From Streptococcus mitis SK564 (GTDB lineage Bacteria > Bacillota > Bacilli > Lactobacillales > Streptococcaceae): 54,306 bases of DNA. How positions within the stretch are numbered: the stretch's first letter is position 1; every line of letters begins with the position of its first letter. The position numbers and the translations under genes were made by a program. The stretch is from positions 1-54,306 of the forward strand of contig NZ_AEDU01000013.1 of assembly GCF_000148525.1 (NCBI RefSeq). The letters run 5' to 3'. The notes under the pieces are model-generated. The model saw nothing but the letters and a program-made list of their open reading frames with translations. It was not told the DNA's origin and did not search any database. Shown here piece after piece: positions 4,209-13,828 of the stretch.

Positions 4209-4407
4209 AATACTCAATGAAAATCAAAGAGCAAACTAGGAAGCTAGCCGCAGGTTGCTCAAAGCACAGCTTTGAGGTTGCAGATAAAACTGACGAAGTC
4301 AGCTCAAAACACTGTTTTGAGGTTGTGGATAGAACTGACAAAGTCAGTAACCATATCTACAGCAAGGCGAAGCTGACGTGGTTTGAAGAGATTTTCGAAG
4401 AGTATTA
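4209..4407 (+). repeat. BOX element with two boxB units (A-B-B-C)
   Basis: The boxA start ATACTCAATGAAAATCAAAG is followed by two 45-nt boxB units, each beginning GCTCAAA and ending in a CTGAC(G/A)AAGTCA dyad. It closes with a boxC ending TTTTCGAAGAGTATTA. The open frame through it is an accident of the repeat, not a gene. Confidence 0.92.
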
Positions 4408-4416
4408 GAATTATAA

Positions 4417-4546: not shown

Positions 4547-7054
4547 TTATTCTGACTCCTTACGAAAGCTAAATAATCCAGCAGTTAGAGTTAACATTCC
4601 AAATAGGGTGGCGAGAATTGAGTGATTTTCTCCAGTATTTGGCAAAGTATTAGCTACTTGTTTCGAAATAGTTTCAGTCTTAGTTGCTAACGGCTCAGCT
4701 TGAGTTTTTGTACTACTTGCGTCATTTCCTTTTTGTTCCGTATTATTACTATTTACAACTGGAACAGGAGTTGTACTACCTCCGTTATCACGGCTTGCGG
4801 CAACTTTAAAAGTCATAGCATAAATACTAAAGTGATTGGTTTCAAAAGTCACCTTATCGGCATTTTGTTTGAAATCAAGCGCAAACAAGCTGCCGTTTTG
4901 ATTCACGTAGTAAACATTTTCCACTGGCTGGTTTGCCAACACGCTAACCGTAACCCAGCCGTTTGGCTGAATAGCCTTGCCTCTCGCGTCATACAGATGA
5001 ATGTCGAAAGCCTTGTATTTTTTTGATTCAAGTGAATTCGACTTGGTTTCTTCTACCCTGATATATCTGACATTTTTGAGTGTTGCTTCTGAACCATATA
5101 CTTGAACGCTTCCAGCTTCGCTCGAAAGAACACGAGTATTGTTTAGGATGGCTGGATTAAGCGTAGGCGTTACGGGAGTTGTCGGTGTTATTGGAGCAAC
5201 TGGTGTAACTGGATTTACAGGATTTTCACTTGGCTTCTCAGCTGGTTTTTCGGTGTGGTTCTTAAATAAGAAAACGTAAGTTTGATAAACTTCTGCGTAT
5301 AAACCAAAATCTCCCTCGCTTCTTCCTCTCTCATTTAGCTGATAACGGTGATAAAGTGGTGTTAACTGCCTATTTTTTGAAAATTGATAGACTTCCACGT
5401 CATTGTCTTCTTTTTTAGTGCGGAAAACCATGTAACCTTGACCTGTGATGTTAGTGTTTTTGTTTAGTTCAACATGTCCTGTTTTTCCATCAAAAATACC
5501 TGTATAAATTGTATACGCTTCATAGTTTCTACCTTCCAATTCTGGAATTTTCACTCGAATCGGATACATATACATATGGCTTTTCAACATTTCTTCACGA
5601 GAAAATTCCCTCCCATTTTCTTCGATCCACCTATTCCCGCCACCTATAAAGTAAGCTAATCTTGGTTTGTTATTGATAAAATCTTTTTCAGCAGTCCATA
5701 TTCCACTGAAAGTTTCCTTCATATCACTGATAGGAAGTGGTGCTACAATATCAGCGTAGGTAACAACAGGGTGTTCATGAACGCTTCCGTCACGTAGAGG
5801 CCATCTTCTCACTGGTTTTCTGTTATTTTCCTGCGGTTGCTCTGCAGGTTTCACTTCTGGTTTTGCTGGATTAGTAGGTTGCGGTTGCTCTGCAGGTTTA
5901 ACCTCTGGTTGAGGGTTTTCTGCTGGTTTTGGAGTTGGAGTTTCAACCGGCTTATTTTCAGCTGGTTTTGGCTGCACAGTTGGTTCAACTGTCTCCGCTG
6001 GTTTCGAAATTCCAGCAGGTTTTTCCGTTTCCGCTGGTTGCGGATCTTTCGGTGTTGGTTTTTCTTCTACTGGTTTATTTTTAGTATAAATAAAATAGTA
6101 GCGAAAAAGCTCGTCTCCTTTACCATTTTTGTAGCCGGAACCACGCAATGCATAAGCTGCATCATAACTAACTCTGACAACTTTTGGATCTGGGTCAATA
6201 TCTGGATGGTCTGCAGCTGATTTTACGACGTGGCTAAAAGTGTAGTCGGAAAATTTTTTTGCTGTTAGTATTCCATCTGCACTATCTTTGTCATGTATGT
6301 CCCATATAGACCAGACTTCCGCTCGTTTTGGACTATCAATCCTTGATTCAGTAGTGTATCCATGTTCCTTGACACGATCAGCATCTAAGAAATCTGCTTG
6401 GATTTCATATGTTCGAATACTTACATCTGATAATGCTGGCACTGCTCCAGGAGGTGCTCCTGGGATTGGTTTATGGAGCAGTTCATCTATGTCAACTCCG
6501 TCTACAGCCCAAAGCTCCTTGTTAGCCTCAGATATCAGTTTATTGTACTCTTCTTGAGTCTTAGCTGCTCCCTTCTTGTATGCCAAATCTTCCGCCACCA
6601 TCCTCTTCATCTCTTCAGAATCTGTTATAGGTTGTTCTGGTTCAGGCGTTATGATTGGTAGACCTGGCTCAGGTAGCTGATTGGTTGGATCGACGTTGTA
6701 TTTTTTCTCGATCTCAGCATTTTTCTTATCCTGTGCGATAGCCTCATCCGTTCCATTTGCAAGAATGTTGCCCTCAGTCGAAGGTTTTTCGACGGGAGCA
6801 GGCTCTTCTACTGGCTTTTCAGCAGGTTTTGAAACTTCTTTGCCTGGCTTTGGCTTAGCAATTGGATCGAGCATACTGAAATCAACCCAGCTACCATTAG
6901 GTTTTGGTGCAGGTGTTGGTTGAGCAGTATTAGGTCTAGCAGCAGCATTTGGCTGCGGCGCAACGTTTTCCTCGGCACGCACCAAAGTTGGCACGGCAGC
7001 ACTAAGAGTGACAGCAGAGAAAGTGACAATACCTAGTTTAGTTAGTTTATTCAT
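4547..7054 (-). CDS. LPXTG-anchored, proline-rich surface protein of unknown function
   Basis: An 835-aa sortase substrate. A signal peptide ends about LVRA-EE (residue 27); there is no YSIRK motif. After it come a Pro/Glu/Lys spacer (about 30-155), a globular region (about 160-345), a long PKPAE-type proline-rich spacer (about 350-450), a second globular region (about 450-635), then another Pro/Thr spacer. A module of about 70 residues follows that is roughly 50% identical to the same-position module of the NanA protein at the right edge of the window. The sorting signal is LPNTG at residues 804-808, then a hydrophobic stretch and a KE-containing tail. Both globular regions are unfamiliar to me and both end in a Y-x-F-x-(Y/F)-x-KN pattern before a PEKP spacer, so they may be diverged repeats. 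The ribosome site GAGGAGG is excellent. The gene sits beside a serine recombinase and inverted crossover sites and is probably phase-variable. An adhesin role is only a guess. Confidence 0.88.
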   Translation of the reverse strand: MNKLTKLGIVTFSAVTLSAAVPTLVRAEENVAPQPNAAARPNTAQPTPAPKPNGSWVDFSMLDPIAKPKPGKEVSKPAEKPVEEPAPVEKPSTEGNILANGTDEAIAQDKKNAEIEKKYNVDPTNQLPEPGLPIITPEPEQPITDSEEMKRMVAEDLAYKKGAAKTQEEYNKLISEANKELWAVDGVDIDELLHKPIPGAPPGAVPALSDVSIRTYEIQADFLDADRVKEHGYTTESRIDSPKRAEVWSIWDIHDKDSADGILTAKKFSDYTFSHVVKSAADHPDIDPDPKVVRVSYDAAYALRGSGYKNGKGDELFRYYFIYTKNKPVEEKPTPKDPQPAETEKPAGISKPAETVEPTVQPKPAENKPVETPTPKPAENPQPEVKPAEQPQPTNPAKPEVKPAEQPQENNRKPVRRWPLRDGSVHEHPVVTYADIVAPLPISDMKETFSGIWTAEKDFINNKPRLAYFIGGGNRWIEENGREFSREEMLKSHMYMYPIRVKIPELEGRNYEAYTIYTGIFDGKTGHVELNKNTNITGQGYMVFRTKKEDNDVEVYQFSKNRQLTPLYHRYQLNERGRSEGDFGLYAEVYQTYVFLFKNHTEKPAEKPSENPVNPVTPVAPITPTTPVTPTLNPAILNNTRVLSSEAGSVQVYGSEATLKNVRYIRVEETKSNSLESKKYKAFDIHLYDARGKAIQPNGWVTVSVLANQPVENVYYVNQNGSLFALDFKQNADKVTFETNHFSIYAMTFKVAASRDNGGSTTPVPVVNSNNTEQKGNDASSTKTQAEPLATKTETISKQVANTLPNTGENHSILATLFGMLTLTAGLFSFRKESE

Positions 7055-7111
7055 AATTTTTTCCTCCTCAGGAATATAAAATTGCCTTTTTAGGCTTATA
7101 AAATGACAAAA

Positions 7112-7210
7112 TCAACTTCCTTTCAAGACCACAAAAGCAAAATTTTGAGCCAACTCATTATCTAAACATTTAATGTCCTTGATAGAAGCCTTAAATAAAC
7201 GTTCATCCAT
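7112..7210 (-). CDS. Possible 32-aa leader ORF in the surface-protein leader
   Basis: The ORF starts ATG GAT GAA CGT and ends TGA 57 nt before the surface-protein ATG. Its start overlaps the stop of an upstream 21-codon ORF as TAATG, a layout typical of translational coupling. Composition is protein-like (MDERLFKASIKDIKC at the start). It could equally be the remnant of one small gene split by a frameshift. Confidence 0.25.
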   Translation of the reverse strand: MDERLFKASIKDIKCLDNELAQNFAFVVLKGS

Positions 7211-7275
7211 TAACTGAACAATACGTCTATCACACTATTACATATCTTAATGATTTTTAAATTTCTTGTTGCCAA
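7210..7275 (-). CDS. Possible 21-aa TTG-initiated leader peptide with a strong ribosome site
   Basis: An unusually good Shine-Dalgarno AAAGGAGGT (7285-7293) stands 9 nt before a TTG that opens 21 codons ending in TAA, coupled to the next small ORF. There is no ATG at a suitable distance, so the start is uncertain. The value of the entry is the unexplained strong ribosome site just downstream of the recombination site at 7311. Confidence 0.25.
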   Translation of the reverse strand: MATRNLKIIKICNSVIDVLFS

Positions 7276-7310
7276 AAGCTAGCTACCTCCTTTAGAGATA
7301 AGGAACTAAG

Positions 7311-7340
7311 TGTATCGCATAACGACCGTTAGACGATACA
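7311..7340 (+). other. Serine-recombinase crossover site, copy 1
   Basis: A 30-bp imperfect palindrome with half-sites TGTATCGCATAACG and TGTATCGTCTAACG (read inward) around a central AC dinucleotide. The outer symmetry extends one more base each side (7310-7341). An asymmetric central dinucleotide within symmetric arms is the layout of serine resolvase/invertase crossover sites. It pairs with the site at 7419-7448. Confidence 0.7.
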
Positions 7341-7418
7341 CAAAAAATGCCAGTCTAATACAGGTTAAAAACACTGTTAAACTCGCATTTTTTTTAATAT
7401 TTATATTCTTATTTTGAA
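7341..7418. promoter_or_regulatory. Putative 78-bp invertible segment carrying a promoter
   Basis: The segment lies between two inverted crossover sites. On the minus strand it holds -35 TTAACA (7375-7380), a 17-bp spacer and -10 TAGACT (7352-7357), which would start transcription near 7345, leftward through copy 1 into the surface-protein gene. Inversion would turn the promoter toward the 3' end of the recombinase gene and leave the surface gene without it. The ends of the segment are themselves complementary (AAAAAATGC at 7342 and GCATTTTTT at 7385), so it may also fold as a terminator. Confidence 0.5.
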
Positions 7419-7448
7419 TGTTTCATCAAACGGTCGTTAATCGAAACA
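7419..7448 (-). other. Serine-recombinase crossover site, copy 2 (inverted)
   Basis: A 30-bp imperfect palindrome. Read on the minus strand its half-sites are TGTTTCGATTAACG and TGTTTCATCAAACG around central AC. It matches copy 1 at 24 of 30 positions, including the inner ten AACGACCGTT. Orientation is opposite to copy 1 by the central dinucleotide, so recombination should invert rather than delete. It lies 16 nt beyond the recombinase stop codon. Confidence 0.7.
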
Positions 7449-7464
7449 AATTTACGGCTTTATT

Positions 7465-8106
7465 CTACCATTTTTCCCTATTTTTAGCAATGATTTTCTG
7501 TTTTTTTTGACGATTGTTCGCCACTTTATTGCGTTCTAACACTTTATATAGGGTTGATGTAGAAATTTGTTCAGCTTTTGCAATATTACGTATGCTTATA
7601 TTTGAATGTAGATATTTGTTAAGTATGCGCTCCTCCTTTTCTTTTGAAATCCGTTTTGCTCCTAATCTAACACCATTTTCCTTAGCTTTTCGAAGTCCCT
7701 CTTTTGTGCGAAACCTCAGATTTTCCAGCTCATTTTCTGCCACAAAGCCTAAAATGATGCAAAGTAACCTGCCAATAAGAGAACCTGTCTCTAGTTTTTC
7801 ATGCAAACTGACTAGGTGAATATTAGATTCATTAAATAGTTCAATAAGTTCTAGCAGCTTAAACATAGATCGAGTCAGTCTATCTAACTTATAGATAGTG
7901 AAAGTAACCTGTTTGCCATCTTTCGAAAAGTCAGAGGCCAGTTTTAAGGCTTTTGTGAGTTCAGGACGAGTATTATTTGCACCAGATTCCTTTTCTATAA
8001 AAAGTTTATCGCAATGTTTGAGAGCTTCGATTTGCACTTTCAATCCTAGGTCTTGCTTATGAGTAGATACACGGGCGTAGCCTATGTTGATAGTCTTTTG
8101 AGACAT
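7465..8106 (-). CDS. Serine site-specific recombinase (resolvase/invertase family)
   Basis: A 213-aa small serine recombinase. The catalytic serine is in YARVST (Ser14), the conserved arginines are in DRLTRS near residue 95, and there is a long E-helix region (LLCIILGFVAENELENLRFRTKEGL) and a C-terminal helix-turn-helix (SIRNIAKAEQISTSTLYKVLERN). Size and layout match Hin/Tn3-resolvase type enzymes, not large serine integrases. Ribosome site AGGAGGA precedes the ATG. No transposase or other transposon gene adjoins it. The only recognisable sites nearby are the inverted pair 16 and 124 nt past its stop, which argues for a dedicated DNA invertase acting on the neighbouring surface-protein promoter. 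Confidence 0.93.
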   Translation of the reverse strand: MSQKTINIGYARVSTHKQDLGLKVQIEALKHCDKLFIEKESGANNTRPELTKALKLASDFSKDGKQVTFTIYKLDRLTRSMFKLLELIELFNESNIHLVSLHEKLETGSLIGRLLCIILGFVAENELENLRFRTKEGLRKAKENGVRLGAKRISKEKEERILNKYLHSNISIRNIAKAEQISTSTLYKVLERNKVANNRQKKQKIIAKNREKW

Positions 8107-8195
8107 AAAAATCCTCCTGTTATCTTGATACAGAGGGATATTTTACTATGAATTTTAAAATAAGAAAAGACTTCAATTTCATAATCCCTATGAAC

Positions 8196-8240
8196 TACAC
8201 CCCAAAAGCTAGATTATTCTATCTAACTTTTTAGGGTGTA
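8196..8240. terminator. Long imperfect hairpin between pepO and the recombinase
   Basis: Arms TACACCC-CAAAAGCTAGAT and ATCTAACTTTTTAGGGTGTA enclose a 6-nt loop. It lies 48 nt past the pepO stop and before the recombinase start. It may terminate pepO. The arm sequence also resembles IS terminal repeats, so it could be a remnant of one. Confidence 0.5.
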
Positions 8241-8288
8241 CATAGATAGGGAAGGTATAATGATAGGAGTTTTACTTGCTTCTTTTCA

Positions 8289-10181
8289 TTACCAAATAAT
8301 CACGCGCTCTTCTGGTGAACGCCACATACCGTCTCCTTCTTTGACATCATAGGTTGTAAAGAAATCATCGAAGTTTGGTACTTGCACATTGACACGGAGT
8401 TTGGCTGGTGCGTGCACATCGACGCTAGCTAAAAGTTTCATAAATTCTGGTCGACCTTTCATGCGCCAGATGCGACCGAAGTTGTAGAAGAATTCTTCTG
8501 CTGAGAAGTCTGGTTCTCTCTTGGCTGCTTCAAGCGCTGCAGCGATTCCTCCCAAGTCAGCCACATTTTCTGACACAGTCAATTTACCGTTGATGGTTGC
8601 TCCATAAGAATCCTGTCCATCAAACTGGTCAATAACTTTTTGTGTTTTCTCCTTGAAGGCAGCATAGTCGCTCTCTGTCCACCAATCCTTGAGGCTACCA
8701 TTTTCATCAAAAGAAGCTCCGTTAGTATCAAAGGCGTGGGAAATTTCATGGGCAATAACCGCCCCGATACCCCCGTAGTTAGCAGAAGATGACTGATGCA
8801 AGTCATAGAAAGGAGCTTGTAAAATGGCCGCGGGGAAGACAATTAGGTTCTTCTGTGGATTGTAGTAGGCGTTGACCATATGAGCAGGCATGCCCCATTC
8901 TTTGTAGTCTACAGGTTGGTTCCACTTGCTCCAACTGTGCTTGATTTCCACACGCGCAAAGGATAGAGCATTGTCAAAAAGACTAGCATTTTCATCCACT
9001 ACCTTGTCCTTATAGCGTTCTGGCAATTCTTCTGGATAACCGATATAAGGCTTGATAACATTGAGTTTGACGATGGCCTTGTCACGAGTTTCAGGAGTCA
9101 GCCAGTCATTTTTAGCCAAGCGTTCCTTATAGACATCAATCATGGTTGCCACTTTTTTCTCTACATCCGCCTTAGCTTCTGGAGAGAATTTTTCATGGGC
9201 ATACCAAAGACCCAAGGCTTGTTTGAAAGGACCTTGTGCTAGCTGGTAGGCTGCCTTGACCTTGTCTTTGGCTTCTGGAACTCCTGAAAGCGCACGACTG
9301 TAGGCACCTGACAAGACACGGATTTCTTCCGTTAAATAGCTAGTTGAAAGATTCACAACACTTAAAATTAAGGTTGCCTTGAGGAGAGGCCATGCCTCTT
9401 CACTATAGAATTGATCTGCTGCTTGCCAGAAACGTTCCTCGTCTACAATAACCTTGTCTGGTACTTGTCCAAGAACAGCTTGGAAGAAGCCATCCAAAGG
9501 TAGGGCAGGCGCGAATTTTTTGAAATCTTCGTAAGCATATGGATGGTAAAGTTTAGCATACTCTGAACTTTCTTCATTAGAAAGCACCACTGCCGCAACT
9601 CGACGGTCCAATTCAAGTCTTTTTTCTAGCAAATCTTCAATTTCTTCATCAGAGAAATCATATTTCTTGAGGAGATTTGCGCTGCTTTCTTTCCAAAGAG
9701 ACAAGAGCTCTTCGCGCTGAGGATGGTCTTCTGCATAGTAGGTCGTATCTGGCAGGATTGTGCTTGGAGCACTAGCCCATAAAACGTTGATTCTGGCATC
9801 CATAAAGTCTGGCGATACACCAAAAGGTAGGAAGTTAGGTTTTCCAGCAAGTTCAAACTCTGCTAGTCTAGCTGTAAAATCTGCAAAAGTCTCCAATTCT
9901 TGGAATTCTTTAAGGAGTGGTAAGACAGGTTTGATACCGTCAGCTTCTCTCTTGTCAAAATCACGAACTAGGCGGTGGTATTTGACAAAGTTTTCTAAGA
10001 TAGCATCCTCAGGCACTTCTTCTCCTGCCAACCACTTGTCTGTTGTCGCCAACATCAAGTCTTCAATTTCCTGGTCTAAATCGACAAAACCTCCCGTTTG
10101 AGACTTATCTGCTGGGATTTCAGCTGTCTTCTGCCATTCTCCATTGATTGCATCATAAAAATCATCTTGATAACGTGTCAT
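8289..10181 (-). CDS. pepO: M13-family endopeptidase PepO
   Basis: A zinc oligopeptidase of 630 aa, the family length for streptococcal PepO. The zinc motif HEISH is at residues 478-482 and the third ligand/catalytic segment ENVAD at 538-542. NAYYNP precedes these, as in M13 enzymes. I chose the ATG giving MTRYQDDFYDAINGEW because family members begin there; an in-frame extension of 20 codons upstream (from 10241) lacks conservation. There is no signal peptide, so the enzyme is cytoplasmic by sequence, although pneumococcal PepO is reported at the surface. It is divergent from psaBCA across a 177-bp intergenic region. Confidence 0.95.
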   Translation of the reverse strand: MTRYQDDFYDAINGEWQKTAEIPADKSQTGGFVDLDQEIEDLMLATTDKWLAGEEVPEDAILENFVKYHRLVRDFDKREADGIKPVLPLLKEFQELETFADFTARLAEFELAGKPNFLPFGVSPDFMDARINVLWASAPSTILPDTTYYAEDHPQREELLSLWKESSANLLKKYDFSDEEIEDLLEKRLELDRRVAAVVLSNEESSEYAKLYHPYAYEDFKKFAPALPLDGFFQAVLGQVPDKVIVDEERFWQAADQFYSEEAWPLLKATLILSVVNLSTSYLTEEIRVLSGAYSRALSGVPEAKDKVKAAYQLAQGPFKQALGLWYAHEKFSPEAKADVEKKVATMIDVYKERLAKNDWLTPETRDKAIVKLNVIKPYIGYPEELPERYKDKVVDENASLFDNALSFARVEIKHSWSKWNQPVDYKEWGMPAHMVNAYYNPQKNLIVFPAAILQAPFYDLHQSSSANYGGIGAVIAHEISHAFDTNGASFDENGSLKDWWTESDYAAFKEKTQKVIDQFDGQDSYGATINGKLTVSENVADLGGIAAALEAAKREPDFSAEEFFYNFGRIWRMKGRPEFMKLLASVDVHAPAKLRVNVQVPNFDDFFTTYDVKEGDGMWRSPEERVIIW

Positions 10182-11957: not shown

Positions 11958-12887
11958 ATGAAAAAATTAGGTACATTACTCGTTCTCTTTCTTTCCGTCA
12001 TTGCTCTTGTAGCATGTACTAGTGGAAAAAAAGATGCAGCTTCTGGTCAAAAACTAAAAGTTGTTGCTACAAACTCAATCATCGCTGATATTACTAAAAA
12101 TATTGCTGGTGACAAGATTGATCTTCACAGTATCGTTCCTGTTGGCCAAGACCCACACGAATACGAACCACTCCCTGAAGACGTTAAGAAAACTTCTCAA
12201 GCTGATTTGATTTTCTACAACGGTATCAATCTTGAAACAGGTGGCAATGCTTGGTTTACAAAATTGGTAGAAAATGCCAAGAAAACTGAAAACAAAGACT
12301 ACTTTGCAGTCAGCGAAGGTGTTGATGTTATCTACCTTGAAGGCCAAAACGAAAAAGGCAAAGAAGACCCACACGCTTGGCTCAACCTTGAAAACGGGAT
12401 GATTTTTGCTAAAAATATCGCAAAACAATTGAGCGCTAAAGACCCTAGCAACAAGGAATTCTACGAAAAAAATCTCAAAGAATATACTGAAAAACTAGAC
12501 AAGCTTGACAAGGAAGCTAAAGAGAAATTTAACAACATCCCTGCTGAGAAAAAACTCATCGTAACTAGCGAAGGATGCTTCAAATACTTCTCTAAAGCCT
12601 ACGGTGTCCCAAGTGCCTACATCTGGGAAATCAACACTGAAGAAGAAGGAACACCTGACCAAATCAAGACCTTGGTTGAAAAACTTCGTCAAACAAAAAC
12701 TCCTTCACTCTTTGTAGAATCTAGTGTGGATGACCGTCCAATGAAGACTGTTTCACAAGACACAAACATCCCAATCTACGCACAAATCTTTACTGACTCT
12801 ATCGCAGAACAAGGTAAAGAAGGTGACAGCTACTACAACATGATGAAATACAACCTTGACAAGATTGCTGAAGGATTGGCAAAATAA
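11958..12887 (+). CDS. psaA: Manganese-binding lipoprotein PsaA
   Basis: The 309-aa cluster A-I solute-binding lipoprotein. The signal peptide ends in the lipobox LVAC (Cys about residue 20). Known metal-ligand context is visible: DPHEYEP, EDPHAWL, the glutamate in [10 protein letters not shown], and ADDRP-like VDDRP plus FTDSIA. I took the ATG of [11 protein letters not shown] because GGAGG lies 5 nt before it; an in-frame TTG 12 nt upstream is part of that ribosome site. It is the last gene of psaBCA. A BOX element begins within its stop codon. Confidence 0.98.
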
Positions 12888-13001
12888 TACTCTTCGAAAA
12901 TCTCTTCAAACCACGTCAGCTTCCATCTGCAACCTCAAAACAGTGTTTTGAGCAACCTGTGGCTAGCTTCCTAGTTTGCTCTTTGATTTTCATTGAGTAT
13001 A
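12887..13001 (-). repeat. BOX element (inverted orientation)
   Basis: Begins ATACTCTTCGAAAATCTCTT and ends TCTTTGATTTTCATTGAGTAT, the reverse complement of the boxC-boxA order, with a boxB-like CAAAACAGTGTTTTGAG hairpin. Its first base coincides with the last base of the psaA stop codon, so it forms the psaA 3' end and the psaA-tpx spacer. Confidence 0.9.
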
Positions 13002-13712: not shown

Positions 13713-13828
13713 TATACTCAATGAAAATCAAAGAGCAAACTAGGAAACTAGCCGTAGGCTGCTCAAGACACTGTTTTGAGGTTGTAGACATAGCTGACGT
13801 GATTTGAAGAGATTTTTATTGAGTATTA
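13713..13828 (+). repeat. BOX element
   Basis: Starts ATACTCAATGAAAATCAAAG, holds a boxB-like CAAGACACTGTTTTGAGG hairpin, and ends TTTTTATTGAGTATTA. It touches the stop codon of the convergent FtsX-type permease gene. Confidence 0.88.

What the first reader, a model, noticed from the sequence alone, without database searches (positions are those of the whole stretch)
7311..7448. Miniature invertible promoter next to a serine recombinase and a surface-protein gene
Two 30-bp sites (7311-7340, 7419-7448) match at 24 of 30 positions in inverted orientation. Each has symmetric arms (half-site consensus TGTWTCGnnTAACG) around a non-palindromic central AC, as in serine-recombinase crossover sites. 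The inverted dinucleotide predicts inversion of the 78 bp between them. That segment has a minus-strand -35 TTAACA, 17-bp spacer and -10 TAGACT, aimed at the LPXTG gene at 7054. The recombinase stop lies 16 nt from the outer site and no transposase is present. Switching would turn a wall-anchored protein on and off. Surface-protein switching by promoter inversion is known elsewhere (for example Mpi in Bacteroides). I do not know of a described case with these sites in pneumococcus. In the orientation given here the promoter faces the gene (ON).
Basis: partly seen in the sequence, partly recalled or inferred. Interest (0 to 1): 0.93.

Follow-up and report, generated by a model that had tools for sequence, protein, structure and literature searches.

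The report
Flippable terminator before surface-protein gene
Next to its recombinase gene, a streptococcus carries a 108-bp DNA segment that is found flipped in related genomes; the segment encodes a hairpin that is predicted to act as a one-way stop signal, so flipping it would likely switch a wall-anchored surface protein on or off, and the same arrangement recurs before many other surface-protein genes.

Summary
Of 53 Streptococcus recombinase loci examined, 52 carry two inverted ~30-bp sites just downstream of the recombinase gene, each pair with inverted, non-palindromic centres (AC/GT or AA/TT). Four of the 52 (L035, L036, L051, L054) hold the segment reversed; in the cleanest case (L036) the exchange maps to the central dinucleotide. 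They are scattered on the recombinase tree. Across the 52, the proposed internal promoter scores no better than shuffles, while a sigma70-like site outside, 11-15 bp before the outer site, is conserved. Inside is a hairpin with a T-tract, more stable in one direction. This works like the C. difficile cwpV switch (PMC2784873) but with a serine recombinase encoded beside it, and it recurs before different surface genes. In the window alone the polarity is weaker than in relatives. Promoter, terminator and recombinase activity are inferred, not tested.

The parts
7465..8106 (-). Small serine recombinase (213 aa; Pfam Resolvase; Ser14 in a GYARVST motif), proposed invertase
   Evidence: matches in 57 of 284 Streptococcus genomes
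7462..7490 (-). Predicted fixed promoter outside the segment: TTGCTA-17-TAGAAT with TG before the -10; the first three bases of the -10 are the recombinase stop codon
   Evidence: the best-scoring outside site lies 11-15 bp before site 1 in 52 of 52 loci
7419..7448 (-). Outer crossover site (next to recombinase), centre GT on the + strand at 7433-7434
7311..7340 (+). Inner crossover site (next to surface gene), centre AC at 7325-7326
7327..7432 (.). Invertible segment between the crossover dinucleotides (centres 108 bp apart); the corresponding segment is reversed in L035, L036, L051, L054
7342..7393 (-). Predicted intrinsic terminator (hairpin with T-tract 7347-7342) facing the surface gene in this orientation
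   Evidence: MFE -19.9 kcal/mol, -13.1 in the other direction; pattern scan does not call it
7352..7380 (-).
4547..7054 (-). Gene proposed to be controlled: 835-aa surface protein with signal-peptide-like start and LPNTGE sortase motif; AGGAGG at 7063-7068

Best explanation
The 7311-7448 element is a two-site DNA segment that is found in both orientations in related genomes and most likely carries an invertible transcription terminator rather than a promoter. Shown: inverted sites with non-palindromic centres beside a serine recombinase gene in 52 of 53 loci, and four natural loci with the segment reversed. Inferred: the recombinase flips the segment; a fixed promoter at the recombinase's 3' end transcribes across it toward the surface gene; in the window's orientation the transcript folds into a hairpin followed by U residues and RNA polymerase stops (OFF); in the other orientation the hairpin is weaker, because in most relatives several G-U pairs become C-A mismatches, and polymerase reads on into the LPXTG gene (ON).
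For: Inversion: the segment of L036 (S. pseudopneumoniae 75_SPSE) matches L045 at 77/78 after inversion (50/86 as read), outer arms unchanged, inner arms swapped; L035, L051 and L054 are reversed too. Centres differ between loci (AC/GT in 46, AA/TT in 6 of 52) yet are inverted in each, though the site finder did not require it. Terminator: local hairpin mean -18.9 kcal/mol and U score 4.84 in the OFF direction, -5.8 and 3.88 in the ON direction, 52 loci; 220 G-U pairs against 7 A-C 1x1 mismatches in the OFF stems. In 11 stem columns of 22 distinct arm pairs (50 loci) 95.9% are paired, shuffles mean 88.4%, 0 of 1000 as high. Promoter: outside site mean 9.46/12 (range 8-11) against 7.63 +/- 0.91 shuffled; internal 7.67 against 7.95. 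L060 and L065 have an unrelated inner sequence that still gives a hairpin and T-tail facing the gene.
Against: No transcript, termination or recombination experiment. In the window alone the two promoter candidates tie (9/12 each) and 3 promoter-like sites are no more than shuffles give (2.3, sd 1.3); the simple terminator scan finds none, probably because of the G-G mismatch and bulge. The window's local hairpin has only one G-U pair; its ON direction has the stronger U score (5.47 against 4.77) and a hairpin of -6.9 local, -13.1 over the segment, itself more stable than shuffles (z -3.0 to -4.4), so the switch may leak. The ON U score equals or exceeds the OFF one in 14 of 52 loci. The internal hexamers or near variants reach 9/12 in some loci beyond the window's clade (L046, L050, L051, L053, L058, L078). 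OFF was defined as the direction of lower MFE, which favours G-U over A-C counts, and loci are related, so counts are not independent. The orientations come from different strains, not one clone. L054's recombinase is interrupted. In L098 the segment's energy does not favour the T-tail direction.
Confidence: 0.74

Rival explanations
1. Invertible promoter: TTAACA-17-TAGACT inside the segment drives the surface gene in the window's orientation, and inversion turns it away.
For: 9/12 match with 17-bp spacing in the window and in 5 of the 6 other loci of its close clade; 9/12 also in 4 of 13 loci of the sister group (L046, L050, L051, L053); 48 of 52 loci have the window's orientation, which would then be ON. 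The S. zooepidemicus SZO08560 inverton was read as a promoter, with 44-fold more forward than reverse RNA (PMC2654543, passages).
Against: Internal score across 52 loci is no better than shuffled DNA; L060 and L065 have 7/12. The hexamers lie in stem arms whose changes keep pairing. A better conserved promoter-like site lies outside.
Confidence: 0.13
2. Both act: the outer promoter is attenuated by the flipping terminator while a weak internal promoter gives some expression in the window's orientation, so the switch sets levels (high/low) rather than on/off.
For: Both promoter-like sites are present in the window; the C. difficile cmr switch has start sites upstream of and inside the invertible element (PMC8844915, passages).
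Against: The internal site is not conserved in most of the 52 loci.
Confidence: 0.1
3. The sites are resolvase accessory or autoregulatory sites of a mobile element, and the segment does not invert in living cells.
For: The recombinase is in the resolvase/invertase fold family; surface gene plus recombinase are absent as one block in G103, where the flanking genes are about 110 bp apart.
Against: Centres are inverted, not direct, in 52 of 52 two-site loci; reversed segments occur naturally; the ORF list (80 aa or more) shows no transposase-sized gene besides the two between the flanking genes.
Confidence: 0.03

Closest known systems
Clostridioides difficile cwpV switch (Emerson et al. 2009, PMC2784873; abstract and passages seen)
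   Same: Promoter upstream of the invertible segment; proposed intrinsic terminator in the OFF transcript only; controls a cell-wall protein.
   Different: 195-bp segment, 21-bp repeats, tyrosine recombinase RecV encoded elsewhere. Here a serine recombinase gene adjoins the switch, with ~30-bp dyad sites, a 2-bp centre, and a predicted promoter overlapping the recombinase stop codon.
S. zooepidemicus SZO08560/SZO08550 (PMC2654543; passages seen)
   Same: Streptococcal LPXTG gene with an adjacent recombinase gene and a ~115-bp segment seen in both orientations in reads.
   Different: Repeats GTAGACTTTA/TAAAGTCTAC, not these sites; read by its authors as a promoter; that repeat pair matched in 0 of 284 genomes, so the relation could not be tested.
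C. difficile flg (Rho-dependent) and cmr switches (PMC7446863, PMC8844915; passages seen)
   Same: Inversion in the 5' leader; in flg, termination decides the phase.
   Different: flg needs Rho; cmr has a promoter in the element; both studied with RecV, not a serine recombinase.
Bacteroides Mpi and Hin-type serine invertases
   Same: Serine recombinases acting on short inverted sites.
   Different: Mpi flips at least thirteen scattered regions (PMC5903667, passage); the hin switch moves a promoter (PMC2784873, passage). Here one site pair was found in the genome and the cargo looks like a terminator.
Pneumococcal hsdS inversion by PsrA
   Same: DNA inversion causing phase variation in a mitis-group streptococcus.
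   Different: Tyrosine recombinase acting on methyltransferase genes (PMC4948785, PMC7096588; abstracts in search listings only).
Synthetic recombinase logic with inverted terminators
   Same: Recombinase-based switches whose text mentions inverted terminators.
   Different: Engineered (PMC5634492; search listing only).

Membership tests
Small serine recombinases (resolvase/invertase) | Resolvase catalytic domain | tested here: met
   PF00239 109 bits against cut-off 23.3
Small serine recombinases (resolvase/invertase) | Catalytic serine in the N-terminal motif | tested here: met
   GYARVST aligned with a DNA invertase and gamma-delta resolvase; that this serine is catalytic is established knowledge, activity not tested
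Small serine recombinases (resolvase/invertase) | C-terminal helix-turn-helix | tested here: inconclusive
   HTH_7 19.8 bits, below cut-off 23.8
Site-specific inversion system | Two inverted sites with non-palindromic centre; both orientations exist | tested here: met
   across strains, not within one clone
cwpV-type invertible-terminator switch | Promoter outside the segment | tested here: inconclusive
   Conserved sigma70-like site before site 1 in 52 of 52 loci; no transcript data
cwpV-type invertible-terminator switch | Intrinsic terminator in one orientation only | tested here: inconclusive
   Predicted; pattern scan negative in the window; window's other direction also folds
cwpV-type invertible-terminator switch | RecV-type tyrosine recombinase acting in trans | tested here: not met
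   The adjacent gene is a serine recombinase; it works like cwpV but is not the same system
Invertible promoter (fim/hin type) | Conserved promoter inside the segment | tested here: not met
   Internal score no better than shuffles across 52 loci, although 9/12 in the window itself
Mpi master invertase | Match to the Mpi family model | tested here: not met
   NF009949 50.3 bits against cut-off 272
Mpi master invertase | Several scattered target sites | tested here: not met
   Only this site pair in the genome at up to 3 mismatches to one pattern
Hin-type invertase | Need for Fis and an enhancer (recalled) | not testable with these tools
   no experiment

The most novel reading that the evidence does not exclude
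A self-contained phase-variation cassette, in streptococci and some other Lactobacillales, in which a serine recombinase gene carries at its 3' end the promoter for the next gene and flips a one-way intrinsic terminator between that promoter and the gene; the cassette stands before many different surface and secreted proteins, and G-U pairs make the terminator work in one orientation only.
Probability: 0.68. Interest if true: 0.8.

Novelty: new variant of a known kind. Interest (0 to 1): 0.73.

Why it matters
It would give mitis-group streptococci and relatives a stochastic switch for wall-anchored proteins that a promoter-based reading gets backwards: the orientation called ON would be OFF. 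Recombinases of this clade (45% identity or more) are in 43 of the 284 Streptococcus genomes searched, up to three loci in one, which would mean that many LPXTG proteins are made by only part of a population; this bears on how adhesion and antigen studies of these species are read. The G-U polarity gives a simple sequence test for natural invertible terminators elsewhere.

Tried and rejected
Internal promoter as the conserved cargo: set aside on scores across 52 loci. Resolvase sites: set aside, centres inverted and reversed loci exist. Mpi-type master invertase: rejected. Known structured RNA: no Rfam match at gathering scores in 6900-8300. Defence protein: no PADLOC match for the recombinase. 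Link to the published S. zooepidemicus repeats: pattern in 0 of 284 genomes, so untested. More distant recombinases: 3 of the 15 Streptococcus hits at 33-37% identity were examined (L089-L091) and gave no site pair. Of 20 other Lactobacillales loci fetched (one search lists more that were not), 9 gave a pair, whose filter required inverted non-palindromic centres; the stricter filter found 5 of those; 11 gave none, though L101 and L103 look like the arrangement by eye. The promoter was not scored there. Dropped before counts: L055 (of 53) because site 1, promoter and hairpin are missing; L060 and L065 from the stem-column count because their inner sequence is unrelated; two partial hit rows (second pieces in G198 and G222). 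The second site of L036 failed the dyad threshold and was placed by hand.

Literature: ten searches, several with more hits than were listed. Among the papers listed, none that I recognised from title, abstract or passages describes this arrangement in streptococci; subscription journals are mostly missing from the library.

Full report
The observation. They match 24 of 30 when one is inverted, each has dyad arms, and the centres are AC and GT. No other pair of that quality occurs in the 54-kb window, and 30 block-shuffled windows gave none. In this genome only these two sites match the pattern with up to 3 mismatches. The neighbouring gene is a small serine recombinase (Resolvase, 109 bits), and the gene beyond has an LPNTGE sortase motif.

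Relatives. The recombinase has matches in 57 of 284 Streptococcus genomes at E<=1e-20, in 70 rows. Of these, 53 loci in 43 genomes are at 45% identity or more (two further rows are second pieces of such loci; 15 are more distant). All 53 were studied with flanks (window). In 52 of 53 two sites lie downstream of the recombinase, 107-119 bp from site to site (in L036 the second site fell below the dyad threshold and was placed by its core, in L039 a masked stretch precedes the sites). Centres are AC/GT in 46 and AA/TT in 6, inverted relative to each other in each. The exception, L055, lacks site 1, promoter and hairpin.

Inversion. In four loci the segment is reversed: L035 (record labelled S. 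pneumoniae SMRU824), L036 (S. pseudopneumoniae 75_SPSE), L051 and L054. L036 against L045: 77/78 identical after inversion, 50/86 as read; both outer arms unchanged, both inner arms swapped, which places the exchange at the 2-bp centre. L054 against L037: 88/89 after inversion. L035 against L044: 75/78. L051 has no close relative (80/89). L035 is odd: its right outer flank copies the left flank in inverted form, perhaps an assembly product of a mixed population. On the recombinase tree the four need four changes, of which well-supported branches force at least two. This says that inversion has happened more than once, not how often it happens now; L054's recombinase is interrupted.

Promoter. 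In the window the internal hexamers score 9 of 12, and so does a site outside the segment at 7490-7462 that also has TG before the -10; the pattern scan finds 3 promoter-like sites against 2.3 in shuffles, so the window alone cannot decide. Across 52 loci the outside site scores 9.46 on average (range 8-11; shuffled 7.63, sd 0.91), 11-15 bp before site 1 with 16-17 bp spacing. The best internal site scores 7.67 as read and 7.77 inverted, no better than shuffled (7.95). The internal hexamers do reach 9/12 in the window and 5 of 6 others of its close clade, in 4 of 13 sister-group loci, and other internal sites reach 9/12 in L058 and L078. In the window the outside -10 begins with the recombinase stop codon.

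Hairpin. In the window's orientation the segment's RNA folds at -19.9 kcal/mol (z -5.4; 0 of 200 shuffles as stable), in the other at -13.1 (z -3.0, 2 of 200; a shorter piece z -4.4, 0 of 200). Over 52 loci the local hairpin averages -18.9 kcal/mol in the OFF direction and -5.8 in the ON direction; the U score averages 4.84 against 3.88, but is equal or higher in the ON direction in 14 of 52, the window among them. Wobble pairing explains much of the difference: 220 G-U pairs against 7 A-C mismatches, or 49 against 2 in fixed columns. A G-U pair becomes a C-A mismatch on the other strand, so such a stem works one way only. The window itself has one G-U pair and a G-G mismatch in its local hairpin, so it is a weak example. 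Stem columns keep pairing through changes (95.9%, shuffles 88.4%, 0 of 1000 as high). OFF was defined by the lower energy, which favours this asymmetry within a locus, and loci share ancestry. L060 and L065 have an unrelated inner sequence that still gives a hairpin and T-tail facing the gene.

Model (inferred). A promoter at the recombinase's 3' end transcribes across the segment toward the surface gene. With the hairpin facing the gene, transcription stops (OFF; 48 of 52 loci, including the window); flipped, it reads through (ON; 4 of 52). The recombinase's own message would meet the same hairpin. In the window the ON direction still has 8 T and a modest hairpin, so its switch may be leaky.

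What it controls. By motif 31 of 53 downstream genes encode LPXTG proteins; 3 more have close variants (L061, L069, L075); 5 are of the same kind but cut, masked, split or without the motif (L035, L038, L039, L048, L058), 2 look secreted without the motif (L060, L065) and 12 are other small or lipoprotein-like products (classes beyond the motif are my reading of the printed ends). In G103 the genes that flank the module in the window lie about 110 bp apart, so surface gene and recombinase appear to be gained or lost together. Outside Streptococcus, 9 of 20 fetched Lactobacillales loci show a site pair with a T-tail after a hairpin (which required inverted centres); by its T-tail L100 appears flipped, and in L098 the energy does not favour the T-tail direction.

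Known systems. The C. difficile cwpV switch is proposed to work the same way (promoter outside, terminator in the OFF transcript) but uses the tyrosine recombinase RecV encoded elsewhere (PMC2784873). The S. zooepidemicus SZO08560 switch is the nearest published streptococcal case I saw and was read as a promoter (PMC2654543); whether it is also a terminator switch could not be tested. So I call this a new variant of a known kind. Ten literature searches listed no paper that I recognised as describing this arrangement; several lists were capped.

Shown: sites, their conservation, reversed loci, promoter-like and hairpin sequences. Inferred: recombinase activity, initiation near 7455, termination, and phase variation of the protein.

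Noticed in passing
L035 around the switch: The right outer flank and half-site repeat the left outer flank in inverted form; possibly an assembly product of a mixed-orientation population, possibly gene conversion. Its surface-protein reading frame also ends without the LPXTG motif.
   Followed up: no
L054, L055, L056: Recombinase interrupted or truncated: L054 would be locked in the ON orientation, L056 in the OFF orientation, and L055 lacks promoter, site 1 and hairpin.
   Followed up: partly
L057, L059, L062-L064, L066-L068, L070, L072-L074: The same arrangement stands before small non-LPXTG genes, several lipoprotein-like, instead of wall-anchored proteins.
   Followed up: no
window 4547-7054 and L034, L036, L043-L045: The surface protein varies in length among close relatives (559 to 958 aa) and has proline-rich stretches.
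   Followed up: no
window 12887-13000, 13714-13816 and 4370-4408: Short dispersed repeats recur and also sit at the junction where G103 lacks the module; possibly BOX/RUP-type elements (recalled names).
   Followed up: no
G000 contig C28:190422-191003: A second, distant serine recombinase in the same genome (29% identity).
   Followed up: no
L106 and L114: Recombinases of only 36-40% identity elsewhere in the order still have ACGAACGT-type inverted sites flanking a terminator-like hairpin.
   Followed up: partly
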